Positions 1,269-27,081 of a stretch of DNA of 64,000 nt are shown in pieces. The notes under the pieces were generated by a model that saw nothing but the letters and a program-made list of their open reading frames with translations, had not been told where the DNA came from and did no database searches. The position numbers and the translations under genes were made by a program. The stretch is taken from contig CM053250.1 of the NCBI GenBank assembly GCA_028583405.1, positions 40,376,347 through 40,440,346 of the forward strand, written 5' to 3'. How positions within the stretch are numbered: the stretch's first letter is position 1; every line of letters begins with the position of its first letter. Origin of the DNA: Pogonophryne albipinna. Lineage: Eukaryota > Chordata > Actinopteri > Perciformes > Artedidraconidae.

Positions 1269-1360
1269 TATGAGGGGCCGTACAGGCCGTAATTCATACT
1301 GGTCCTCTCACGCACATACATTCTCCTTATACATACATACATTTTCACTCTTACACACAT
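1269..1360 (+). repeat. Left terminal inverted repeat of the 25.8 kb element
   Basis: This 92-bp repeat starts TATGAGGGGCCGT, passes through TACTGGTCCTCTCACG and ends in ACATACATTTTCACTC-type sequence. It matches the reverse complement of 26990-27081 with only a few mismatches. Confidence 0.85.
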
Positions 1361-1835
1361 ACATTCTCCTTTCACATACATACATTTTCACTCTCACACA
1401 CGTATATATTTACACTCACACATTCATACATTTTGCTCTCATATTATCATATTTCAATGCACACATTCATATATTGTCACTCACACATTCATGCATTTTG
1501 TTCTCATATTCATATATTTTAATGCTCATATTTATACATTTTGCTCTCATGCACATTCATTCAATGTTTACATTTAATATTATAAATAATATATGCATGT
1601 ATGAAGACAATGTATGTATGCAAGAGAAGAATGTATGTATATATGAAGACAATATGTGTATGCAAGAGAAGAATGTATGTATGTGTGAGAGAAAGTATAG
1701 TGGAAACTGAAGGAGTATGGTTGAAACGGAAGGCAGGTCATTATCGCGCTGTGATTGGCTCAGAAGGTCGAGTGGGGCGGGCTCATGTTCAGAACTTCGG
1801 ATTCAAATCAACATGATGGAGGGAGATGAATCCGT

Positions 1836-2720
1836 GGCCCTTTCTCATTTCTCTAACTCCCCTCCTCGACTCCTATCCTCGAGACTTAGTCCCGCCCGCA
1901 GGAGATGCGAGCGGAGGAGCCGAGGAGAGGAGCCGAGGAGAGAGGAGGGGAAGCAGCAGGCGGTTAGAGAAATGAGAACTCCTCTCCTCTGAGCGGTCAT
2001 TTTAAAGAGACGTCCATTAATGATGACAGAGGCACAGCAGCCCTCTGTCTGATGGACAGATGTGTTCATGACCACCAGGCCTGTTCTACTGAGTGATATA
2101 TATTATACACACTGCTCTGCTTTCTGCACGGACCTCACAGCTGTTCTCTCTGGAAACATCGCGTCGCGATGAAAGCAGTTAATAAAATAATATCCAGGGG
2201 ATGCATGCAGAGCTGTCATTGGCTGAGATAAGTCCGGCCGTGCGTCACGTCTCTTTGAAACATCTCTGTTCCCGGAAATGCATCCCACGAAGGAGCCGTG
2301 GAGGACCGTGGAGGACCCATCAGTGTATCCTCGGTTAGAGCTCCTCCAGAGAGCCTCCTCGACGCTCGGTCCTCGAAGTGCATTTGGAGAAATGAGATGT
2401 CCTTCAACATGGCGCGCTAAAATTCATTTCCGGGTCACTACCGGAGGACCGAGGAGTCGAGGAGGGGGATTTGATGAAATGAGAAAGGGCCCTGGAAATG
2501 AATTTTAGCGCGCCATGTTGAAGGACATCTAATTTCTCTAAATGCACTTCGAGGACCGAGCATCGAGGAGGCTCTCTGGAGGAGCTCTAACCGAGGATAA
2601 ACTGATGGGTCCTCAACGGCTCCTTTGTGGATGCATTTCCGGGAACAGAGATGTTTCAAAGAGACGTGACGCACGGCCAGACTTATCTCAGCCAATGACA
2701 GCTCTACATGCATCCCCTGG
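1836..2720. repeat. GC-rich palindromic TIR repeat, left half
   Basis: Begins GGCCCTTTCTCATTTCTC, rich in CCTCGACTCC. Its outer part is inverted at 7530-7782 and its inner part at 6643-7050. An internal fold-back is centred near 2490, where 2281-2490 mirrors 2494-2700. Both ends have the gggccctttctcattt signature. It looks non-coding and non-autonomous. Confidence 0.6.
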
Positions 2721-3533
2721 GCCCAGGAGTTCAAAACTTTGAATCCCTATCTGATCAAATCAGATTTTGAAATCCCATGTTTTGTGATCCAGGATCAGAC
2801 AAGTCGGCCAAATTTTGTCCCTGGAGTTCAAAGCAATTCAGGATAGGATCAGTCTGATCCAGATTACGATTTTTCAAGATGACTAGATCCTGAATATCAG
2901 TGCTGTAATCCTACCGATCGCCATCTAGTGGATATGAAAAGTAATACAAGGAAGACAAGAGACCACATTGCAGAGACATCTATTGTCCGCAATTACTTTT
3001 GAAAGGTGATGACAGATGATGGACTTTTTTTTTGTTGAAGATATTTTTTATTTAATCTAAATTACATTTGTGATTGACAATCTTTTATGAGCATACACAT
3101 TTATGTCATCAACATTTGGTTGAAAACAAAATAGGCCACCACAAACGTGGGCAAAAATGGAAAAAATAAAATGTATTTCCCATGAAGGCTAAACATGGTG
3201 TATTATTTCAGTTCACAAACTTTGCCATTTTATTTAAATTGAAACATATTTTTAAATAAATGGTACAGTACATGTTGCTCTGGTAATCCACTGGAGATCC
3301 ACCCCTCTGGTGGGATCAGGATAATCCATTTTTTTGTGATCAAACTGATCCCAATCCTGTGTTGTCGGTTTGAACTACCCGTTTTGAAGATTTGATCCAG
3401 ATTAAAGCTTGGATTGGATTTCCTGATCTGATCGGATATCAAAGTGATCCTAATCCTGTTTTTTGGTTTTGAACTCCCCAAAATCCAAATCTGATCTGAT
3501 CAGATAGGGATTAAAAATGTTGAACTCCTGGGC
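2721..3533. mobile_element. 813-bp TIR MITE with CCTGG duplication
   Basis: Termini GCCCAGGAGTTCAA and TTGAACTCCTGGGC are inverted, followed inward by repeated TCTGATC motifs. CCTGG occurs at 2716-2720 and 3534-3538. Its insertion splits a sequence that is continuous at 6940-6970 (catcccctggatatta). No coding capacity is seen. Confidence 0.75.
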
Positions 3534-3635
3534 CCTGGATATTATCTTATTAACTGCTTTCATCGCAACGCGATGTTTCCAGAGAGAACAGCTGTGAGGT
3601 CCGTGCAGAAAGCAGAGCAGTGTGTATAATATATA

Positions 3636-4012
3636 TCACTCAGTATAACAGGCCTACTCTCTTTATTTGCTGTAGTTTAGTAGATATCTACAAAACAAAG
3701 AGTCGATATTTTTCTAAGACCATTTAGTGCTTCACATAATAAAATACACAACGGCTGTAGCCTGATTATGCTTTAGGAGCAGTAGGTGTGTGTGGTACAG
3801 TGTGTGTGTGTGTGTGTGTGTTGCACAGTGTGTAGGTGTGTGTGTTGTACAGTGTGTAGGTGTGTGTGTTGTACAGTGTATAGGTGTGTGTGTGGTACAG
3901 TGTGTAGGTGTGTGTGGTACAGTGTGTATGTGTGTGTGGTACAGTGTGTGCGTAGATGCAGCGGACAGACAGGTCTCAGTTGGTTTGGTGTCCTCTGCTT
4001 ACTTTTAATACT
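3636..4012. repeat. Direct-repeat block with GT-rich minisatellite
   Basis: 3636-3780 is directly repeated at 7051-7180, and 3951-4012 at 7216-7277. Between them, 3787-3950 is a tandem array of about 20 bp units of the type gtgtgtggtacagtgtgtag. The open frames over the array are periodic and not considered genes. Confidence 0.6.
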
Positions 4013-4013
4013 T

Positions 4014-25801: not shown

Positions 25802-25882
25802 GTGTGTGTGTGTGTGTGTGTGTGTGTGTGTGTGTGTGTGTGTGTGTGTGTGTGTGTGTGTGTGTGTGTGTGTGTGTGTGTG
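25802..25882. repeat. (GT)n microsatellite, outer (right arm)
   Basis: Mirror of 9349-9450. Confidence 0.95.
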
Positions 25883-26049
25883 TTAATTGTTCTTAAGGTA
25901 GGGGGTAGGTCATTTTGGAGAAACCATCTCGAGTGAGCGAGAATTAGAAAATACACAACCAAAAATCTGCCGCTTCCTCACATAGCCCCTCCTCCAGCAC
26001 ACATGAACGCGCTCCACATGACCAGAAAGAGGGCACGAGATAAGTTTAT

Positions 26050-26200
26050 GCAAAGATCTCTGGCTGTAGGCGTCTGACTCCAGCCCCGCTGAGGCATTCG
26101 TTTCTTGAATGGCGCTACGGACGGATGGCGGTAAGTTGTCACAGGCGTCTCTTGGCCATTTTTCTTTTTTGCAAGGTGACTTGGTAAGTGGAAATTACTG
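26050..26200 (-). pseudogene. Decayed 5' fragment of the 268-aa gene (right arm)
   Basis: Mirror of 9000-9180, with the same 27-bp deletion between gagacgcct repeats. The deletion therefore predates the arm duplication or was spread by gene conversion. The stretch 26,201-26,430 shows nothing recognisable. Confidence 0.65.
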
Positions 26201-26429
26201 TCTTTTTAATTTGAGAATATTCCTATTTTCATCTAATTCCCCCTATCTGATAGCCTCTGAGGCCCAAAAGGAAGGGGGTGGAGAAAAGGGGGGAGAGGCC
26301 TGTGCGGGGGTTAGACAGTCTCACACATAACTTCAAAAGACACACCTAGATTAACATCAAAAGGCTTATAACACACCACCTCAAAGGGCATAACATCACA
26401 GGCTAATTAGATTATACAACCCTGAGGGG

Positions 26430-26815
26430 GACCAGACTGCGTAACTTCAAAGAGACTGCATTAATCAACACATCAAAGAAATAGACAACAAAGGCACTAC
26501 CCTAGGGGGCTTTTCACACCTACCTATTATCTCACATCAAAGAAATAGACTACAAGGGGGGACATGGGCCAGACAACATAACTTCAAAGAGACTACCTTA
26601 ATCAACACATCAAAGAAATAGACAACAAAGGCACTACCCTGGGGGGCTTTTCACACCTACCTATTATCTCACATCAAAGAATTAGACTACAAGGGGGGAC
26701 AGGGCCAGACAACATAACTTCAAAGAGACTACCTTAATCAACACATCAAAGAAATAGACAACAAAGGCACTACCCTGGGGGGCTTTTCACACCTACCTGT
26801 TATCTCACATCAAAA
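26430..26815. repeat. 137-bp tandem repeat array (right arm)
   Basis: Mirror of 8412-8820 with the same three units. Confidence 0.8.
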
Positions 26816-26989
26816 GATCTCGAACAATGGGAGGCGGGACTTAGCTCATTAACATGATTGTACCCAATCACATCAAAGGGTTTCGAACAATGGAGGCGGG
26901 ACTTAGCTCATTTGCATAATTGGGGGCGTGTCACTTGTCACTTTTTTATGCATACTAATGAGACGAAAGGGGCATTTGTACTACTACTT

Positions 26990-27081
26990 ATGTGTGTAAG
27001 AGTGAAAATGTATGTATGTATAAGGAGATTGTATGTGCGTGAGAGGACCAGTATGAATTACGGCCTGCACGGCCCCTCATA
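26990..27081 (-). repeat. Right terminal inverted repeat of the 25.8 kb element
   Basis: A 92-bp inverted copy of 1269-1360, ending GGCCCCTCATA. It is followed by CCCTTG, the right copy of the target duplication (27082-27087). Confidence 0.85.

What the first reader, a model, noticed from the sequence alone, without database searches (positions are those of the whole stretch)
1269..27081. A 25.8 kb palindromic, gene-carrying mobile element of unknown class
Seen: 92-bp inverted ends (TATGAGGGGCC...), CCCTTG duplication, and an interrupted L1 frame that closes when the element is removed. Inside are intronless genes with their own promoters, duplicated in two arms. Known: cargo-bearing giant elements in fish (such as Teratorn or Mavericks) have recognisable transposase, integrase, polymerase or capsid genes; none is visible here, and neither a TTAA target nor Maverick genes are present. 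Inference: a new class of non-autonomous giant transposon, or an integrated and decayed DNA virus.
Basis: partly seen in the sequence, partly recalled or inferred. Interest (0 to 1): 0.92.

Follow-up and report, generated by a model that had tools for sequence, protein, structure and literature searches.

The report
Nested element: mirror-image Maverick satellite
The "25.8 kb element" is two mobile elements, one inside the other: an ordinary cut-and-paste DNA transposon hit by a mirror-image (palindromic) offshoot of a virus-like Maverick element that is repeated many times in this genome although no replication, integration or capsid gene could be recognised in it.

Summary
The outer (1269-8237 plus 26989-27081) is an enlarged copy of a high-copy family with TAT..ATA ends; a 12.5 kb relative with the same ends has an integrase-type transposase (IS3EU-like). 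Into its right end landed a second element, 8238-26988, with its own 6-bp duplication (TATGTG); the closed junction is found in 14 of 14 relatives examined. The inner element is a giant palindrome with AGTAGT..ACTACT ends. Its 268-aa gene has 143 scored genomic matches; 31 of 32 close neighbour pairs are convergent, and all 8 copies with both ends readable have perfect 6-bp duplications: Maverick/Polinton hallmarks. On C18 of the same genome a 19.4 kb element with polymerase B, matching duplications and homologous ends carries the 268-aa gene and a 168-aa relative. Best reading: a non-autonomous palindromic Maverick derivative, probably moved in trans by full Mavericks. One mirror point recurs in about half the centres examined; arms of a copy tend to be alike, with uneven support. 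My literature searches found no such element described. Replication route and packaging are inferred.

The parts
1263..1268 (.). CCCTTG target-site duplication of the outer transposon, left copy, inside an L1-type element
1269..1361 (+). left terminal inverted repeat of the outer transposon (TATGAGGGGCC...)
   Evidence: 91 of 93 identical to 26989-27081; its first 11 bases occur 620 times in the genome vs 72 for the reversed-pattern control
1269..8237 (.). body of the outer IS3EU-like non-autonomous transposon (imperfect inverted arms, further insertions)
8232..8237 (.). TATGTG target-site duplication of the inner palindromic element, left copy
8238..26988 (.). inner element: palindromic Maverick-derived element, ends AGTAGT..ACTACT, mirror point about 19413
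10164..11163 (.). assembly gap (1000 N) flanked by duplicated contig ends 9450-10013 / 11574-12137
12668..13474 (+). 268-aa gene, left arm
   Evidence: family also in the polymerase-B-bearing element on C18
13794..15190 (.). 1397-bp insertion in the left arm only, TA..TA ends, 6-bp duplication GGTTTA; another transposon
   Evidence: empty site in the right arm
15992..16498 (+). 168-aa gene (CxxC and HPGQ motif), left arm
   Evidence: diverged relative in the C18 Maverick
16567..17031 (+). 154-aa ORF, left arm
18119..19219 (+). 366-aa gene, left arm
19401..19426 (.). loop at the mirror point; the same loop with arm sequence recurs in other copies
19608..20708 (-). 366-aa gene, right arm
21795..22163 (-). 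154-aa ORF, right arm (122 aa from its first ATG)
22327..22833 (-). 168-aa gene, right arm
23949..24755 (-). 268-aa gene, right arm
26989..26994 (.). TATGTG target-site duplication of the inner element, right copy (also the inner edge of the outer repeat)
26989..27081 (-). right terminal inverted repeat of the outer transposon
27082..27087 (.). CCCTTG target-site duplication of the outer transposon, right copy

Best explanation
Two nested insertions. (1) An IS3EU-like cut-and-paste transposon without a recognised transposase gene inserted into an L1 with a 6-bp duplication; it can plausibly be moved by an integrase-type transposase such as the one in a 12.5 kb relative with the same ends. (2) Later a palindromic, non-autonomous derivative of a Maverick/Polinton inserted into that transposon with its own 6-bp duplication. 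The derivative has Maverick-type ends and accessory genes (268, 168, 154, 366 aa) in mirror image, and nothing recognisable as polymerase, integrase or capsid. Shown: ends, duplications, copy number, recurrent palindromic layout, a mirror point shared by several copies, and a polymerase-bearing Maverick-type element in the same genome with homologous ends and two of the gene families. Inferred: the palindrome arose by strand switching (snap-back) during copying of a Maverick end, and it spreads when full Mavericks supply polymerase and integrase in trans; copying through a self-complementary strand would keep the two arms alike.
For: Arm homology stops at the inner edge of the outer repeat in 21 of 28 non-window arms. 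Of 34 arm ends examined 27 could be read, 26 of these read ACTACT outward; 7 copies there had both ends readable and all 7 have perfect 6-bp duplications, as has the window copy. 14 of 14 examined right ends of outer-family copies carry the closed junction with 1-6 edits in 34. (AGT)2//(ACT)2 ends, 6-bp duplications and size 16.9 +/- 1.7 kb are reported for vertebrate Mavericks (PMC8097293, section 7 and passages). C18:2974012-2993389: duplication TACACC at both ends, end repeats 92% identical over 327 columns and 88% identical to the window element over 98 bp, polymerase B, 268-aa gene, 168-aa relative at 34% identity, E 1e-22. Neighbouring 268-aa genes: 31 convergent, 1 divergent, 0 same-strand. 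Seven true arm pairs differ at 2-22 of about 1326 sites, mean between copies 1.8%; ten variants are private to both arms of one copy.
Against: Integrase and capsid were not looked for in the C18 element, and the one packaging-ATPase family searched (PF04665) matched nowhere in the genome. Families 154 and 366 were not seen in a polymerase-bearing element (only 2.1 kb of the inside of one was read; the 366-aa match list has none there). Arm likeness is uneven: the ten variants private to both arms come from 4 of 7 copies (5 of them from one), against 57 private to one arm; clade support for pairs runs from 4 to 99 and the C109 pair is not a two-member clade. The selection test did not separate shared from single-arm variants. 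The possible snap-back stem near the mirror point is weak (z -1.4 and -1.5; none in the window's own 154-aa gene, z +1.2).
Confidence: 0.87

Rival explanations
1. One 25.8 kb palindromic transposon of a new class with 93-bp ends, as first proposed.
For: CCCTTG duplication and 93-bp ends around the whole interval.
Against: 21 of 28 other arms stop at the inner edge of those ends; the inner element has its own duplication; outer-family copies without the genes carry the closed junction.
Confidence: 0.03
2. The palindrome is a one-off chromosomal inverted duplication or an assembly artefact.
For: Gap with duplicated contig ends in the left arm; head-to-head joins are a known assembly error (recalled).
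Against: 31 convergent pairs genome-wide (a few may be segmental duplicates of each other), 6-bp duplications around all 8 copies with both ends readable, the same mirror point in 9 of 20 centres fetched, and an arm-specific 1397-bp insertion.
Confidence: 0.04
3. The palindrome formed once, and what likeness the arms have is kept by ordinary gene conversion after insertion, or reflects shared subfamily ancestry, rather than copying through a hairpin.
For: Shared mirror point; three of seven copies (C3, C9, C109) have no variant private to both arms.
Against: Not excluded. Arms of a copy differ less (2-22 sites) than copies do on average (about 23 sites), but the ranges overlap (smallest between-copy value 0.45%).
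Confidence: 0.35
4. Decaying complete Mavericks that happen to have accumulated inverted repeats, not a distinct mobile unit.
For: Most vertebrate Maverick copies are degraded (PMC8097293 passages).
Against: Same ends, layout and mirror point recur; about 104 of the 143 listed 268-aa matches have no internal stop (hand count); none of 4 main and 26 further right-arm ORFs of 70 aa or more matches a Pfam family.
Confidence: 0.06

Closest known systems
Vertebrate Maverick/Polinton (incl. adintoviruses)
   Same: (AGT)2//(ACT)2 ends, 6-bp target duplication, comparable size (about 15 kb without later insertions), accessory genes beside the ends, homologous ends and two gene families shared with a polymerase-B-bearing element in the same genome
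   Different: no recognised polymerase, integrase or capsid gene; the halves are mirror images, so the end repeat spans the whole arm
IS3EU / GingerRoot DNA transposons
   Same: outer element: TA..TA ends, 6-bp duplication, relative with a PF24764 integrase-core ORF and a HECT-domain ORF
   Different: no transposase recognised in the window copy; not placed on a tree with named IS3EU
Foldback elements and large chromosomal palindromes (recalled)
   Same: long inverted arms
   Different: here a gene-carrying unit with Maverick-type ends and target duplications
Defective palindromic genomes of protein-primed linear DNA viruses (adenovirus type; recalled)
   Same: mirror-image duplication of one genome end, dependent on a helper
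   Different: here in chromosomal DNA in many copies; no packaging evidence
Teratorn
   Same: giant gene-bearing mobile element in fish
   Different: piggyBac element largely derived from a herpesvirus, 180 kb (title and start of abstract in the listing)

Membership tests
Maverick/Polinton (inner element) | (AGT)2 // (ACT)2 end motif | tested here: met
   26 of 27 readable ends out of 34 examined; window both ends
Maverick/Polinton (inner element) | 6-bp target-site duplication | tested here: met
   7 of 7 copies with both ends readable and the window; three of the ten pairs chosen (C2, C10, C11b) were not readable at both ends
Maverick/Polinton (inner element) | protein-primed DNA polymerase B gene inside | tested here: not met
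   no PF03175 match on C9 in the six-frame genome search
Maverick/Polinton (inner element) | retroviral-type integrase and capsid genes inside | tested here: inconclusive
   no Pfam match for the 4 main ORFs or 26 further right-arm ORFs of 70 aa or more; Maverick capsid models may be missing from Pfam. Filed as a derivative, not as a full Maverick
Maverick/Polinton (C18 element) | polymerase B, end motif, end repeats, 6-bp duplication | tested here: met
Maverick/Polinton (C18 element) | integrase and capsid genes | not tested
   only the ends and 2.1 kb beside the 268-aa gene were read; the whole element was deliberately not fetched
IS3EU (outer element) | TA..TA termini | tested here: met
   TAT..ATA; criterion from PMC10045372 passages
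IS3EU (outer element) | 6-bp target duplication | tested here: met
   window CCCTTG; exact in 10 of 16 fetched family loci; the 12.5 kb one, among the six without an exact match, has 5 of 6 bases
IS3EU (outer element) | IS3-like DDE transposase in the autonomous relative | tested here: inconclusive
   PF24764 integrase core, E 2.6e-80, in the 12.5 kb relative with the same ends; not placed on a tree with named IS3EU
PC4-like ssDNA-binding protein (268-aa) | profile similarity to PC4 | tested here: inconclusive
   order of strands and helices resembles it in a very low-confidence model (pLDDT 33); profile comparison gave no support

The most novel reading that the evidence does not exclude
A satellite of a vertebrate virus-like element: a self-complementary linear genome that Maverick polymerase copies from identical ends, that refolds into a single hairpin in each round (keeping both arms alike), and that is packaged in Maverick particles and integrated by Maverick integrase, analogous to defective or satellite genomes of adenovirus-like viruses but established as a multi-copy family in chromosomes.
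Probability: 0.2. Interest if true: 0.86.

Novelty: new variant of a known kind. Interest (0 to 1): 0.68.

Why it matters
Non-autonomous partners are known for many DNA transposons (recalled), but I found none described for Mavericks in the searches made. A palindromic one with a recurrent mirror point would be a record of how protein-primed linear genomes snap back, and would show that Mavericks can be parasitised. The amplification of defective Mavericks in some vertebrates is called perplexing (PMC8097293 passages); derivatives moved in trans are one testable answer.

Tried and rejected
Searches of IMG/VR with single proteins, alignments and the outer end pattern found nothing; the 366-aa protein had no match in the phage collection; Rfam none; solved structures nothing of note. 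A PC4 idea got no profile support (a first version timed out). These tests used 29 of the 30 fetched arms (L042 dropped for an alignment gap), and the 30 were the best-scoring of 143, a biased sample. Searches treated two C5 loci 25.5 kb apart as one copy; they lie in what looks like a segmental duplication, so they are left out of the pair counts here and the private variants were recounted without them; the odds for the novel case were lowered from 0.25 to 0.2 for this. PF04665 gave no match. The C14 element beside another polymerase was not closed: one end was read, its partner was not found with the pattern used. An earlier count gave '11 of 14' exact duplications for the outer family; the recount is 10 of 16 loci.
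Full report
OBSERVATION. The outer ends are real: 1269-1361 and 26989-27081 match in 91 of 93 positions, both flanked by CCCTTG, and L1-type coding sequence continues when the flanks are joined with a single CCCTTG. Self-comparison shows two separate palindromes: an older one, 1352-8241, with arm pieces 83-96% identical, and a younger one, 8238-26988, with arms 98-99.8% identical and a mirror point near 19413. A 1000-N gap lies in the left arm, with duplicated contig ends (9450-10013 = 11574-12137, 99.6%) and two stretches next to the gap that match nothing else in the window.

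OUTER ELEMENT. The window lies in an unnamed 1.07 Gb genome (C9:40376347-40440346), presumably a fish (inference). The first 11 bases of the outer end occur 620 times against 72 for the reversed-pattern control. Sixteen loci with paired ends were fetched (the longest in two pieces; one locus holds two pairs); 10 of 16 have exact 6-bp duplications, and typical members match window 1305-1836, 4014-4536 and 5726-6643. So window 1269-8237 is a member of a roughly 2.8 kb family enlarged by insertions. A 12.5 kb relative (C3:26111366-26123860; first 120 bases of both ends identical, 5 of 6 duplication bases the same) carries an ORF with PF24764 integrase core (E 2.6e-80) and a HECT-domain ORF. TA..TA ends with 6-bp duplications are given for IS3EU in PMC10045372 (passages).

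INNER ELEMENT IS SEPARATE. The 268-aa gene gave 143 scored matches out of 1881 first-look candidates, a lower bound; the 168-aa gene 150 out of 543; the 366-aa gene 115 matched stretches. Of 28 fetched arms outside the window, 21 lose homology at 26988-26995, the inner edge of the outer repeat; one each at 26814, 26975 and 27001; four run off the fetched piece. Of 34 arm ends examined, 27 could be read and 26 of these read ACTACT outward. Seven copies had both flanks readable and all seven have reverse-complementary 6-bp flanks, that is perfect duplications; the window copy is the eighth. Three of the ten pairs chosen (C2, C10, C11b) could not be read at both ends. Closing the inner insertion gives a 34-base junction found with 1-6 edits (9 of them with 3 or fewer) in 14 of 14 right ends examined; two loci, L021 and L023, were not included. 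The inner element therefore inserted into the outer one.

PALINDROME IS A RECURRENT FORM. Among neighbouring 268-aa genes 2.5-16 kb apart, 31 pairs are convergent, 1 divergent, 0 same-strand; the 31 pairs hold 62 of the 143 matches, and some may be segmental duplicates of each other. Twenty 2-kb stretches near expected centres were fetched. Arm homology reaches the window's mirror point in 9; a tolerant probe found the window's loop next to arm sequence in 8 (L076, L078, L080, L081, L083, L085, and on one side only L088 and L090). In the other 11 no arm homology at the mirror point was seen, either because the stretch missed the centre or because the centre is altered. The mirror region contains a remnant resembling the 154-aa gene, and the same loop sequence occurs in four other stretches (L086, L093, L094, L095), of which L086 and L094 were checked and hold full 154-aa genes at that place. 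A short stem can form there in L086 and L094 but is weak against shuffles, and it is absent in the window's own gene. I read this as one ancestral snap-back, with low confidence in its seed.

ARMS. On about 1326 aligned sites, the two arms of a copy differ at 2, 7, 9, 9, 10, 12 and 22 sites in seven pairs; the mean between copies is 1.8%, the smallest 0.45%. Six of the seven pairs are two-member clades, with support from 4 to 99 where given; C109 groups with two other arms. Ten variants are private to both arms of one copy (C11 5, window 3, C15 1, C18 1; none in C3, C9, C109), against 57 private to one arm. So likeness of arms is suggested but uneven; conversion, hairpin copying and shared ancestry all remain open.

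MAVERICK ORIGIN. PMC8097293 (section 7 and passages) gives (AGT)2//(ACT)2 ends, 6-bp duplications, 16.9 +/- 1.7 kb size and accessory regions flanking the core for vertebrate Mavericks. This genome has 78 PF03175 polymerase stretches. On C18, the polymerase at 2978954-2980822 (+) faces a 268-aa gene at 2992111-2992908 (-). The element's right end at 2993389 has flank TACACC; the left end at 2974012 was found by a pattern built from that end and flank, one of 6 hits against 6 for the control, and reading it confirmed the duplication and an end repeat 92% identical over 327 columns, itself 88% identical to the window element over 98 bases. Next to the 268-aa gene is a 168-aa relative, 34% identical, E 1e-22. 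A second polymerase neighbour, C14, has one Maverick-type end read; its partner was not found. Relatives of the 268- and 168-aa proteins also exist in unnamed public contigs, one 268-aa relative at 52% identity over the full length.

GENE CONTENT. None of the 4 main ORFs and none of 26 further right-arm ORFs of 70 aa or more matches a Pfam family, and PF03175 has no match on C9.

MECHANISM. Shown: insertion with 6-bp duplications, Maverick-type ends, gene sharing with a polymerase-bearing element, palindromic layout. Inferred: Maverick polymerase and integrase act in trans on the ends; the palindrome arose by strand switching; self-complementary copying or later conversion keeps arms alike. 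The window's right arm is 7575 bp, so a full palindrome is about 15.2 kb without the left-arm insertion, near the reported Maverick size; whether it is packaged is unknown.

LITERATURE. Searches for palindromic, Polinton and non-autonomous together (14 papers, 12 listed, titles and abstract starts seen), for Maverick with satellite, defective, inverted duplication and the like (33 papers, 12 listed), and for exact phrases on non-autonomous or palindromic Polinton/Maverick (0 papers) showed no description of such an element. In the preprint PMC11071296 a term search found no palindromic or satellite passage. Repbase was not available and may hold non-autonomous Polintons (not checked).

Noticed in passing
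13794-15190: A 1397-bp insertion present only in the left arm, ends TACGGAGCCC..GGGCTCCGTA, duplication GGTTTA, with arrays of a 21-bp-like repeat: another TA..TA transposon with a 6-bp duplication.
   Followed up: partly
G000 C3:26111366-26123860 (L012, L013): 12.5 kb element with the outer ends, carrying an integrase-core transposase ORF and a HECT-domain ORF: possible mobiliser of the outer family.
   Followed up: partly
59877-61332: Large array of 45-bp repeats forming an open frame (HGDAQPLPLTPNSHH repeats).
   Followed up: no
43843-48000 and 62837-63781: ORFs resembling a Pao/BEL-type retrotransposon polyprotein (recalled resemblance, not tested).
   Followed up: no
9026-9250 and 25981-26205: Remnant of a second 268-aa-like gene start near the outer end of each arm.
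   Followed up: no
G000 C23:3086068-3202495: Three polymerase B loci in very long open frames (1212, 1403 and 1687 aa) within about 120 kb.
   Followed up: no
G000 C5:19622839-19659292: Apparent segmental duplication of a palindromic copy: gene matches with identical scores repeat about 32 kb apart.
   Followed up: partly
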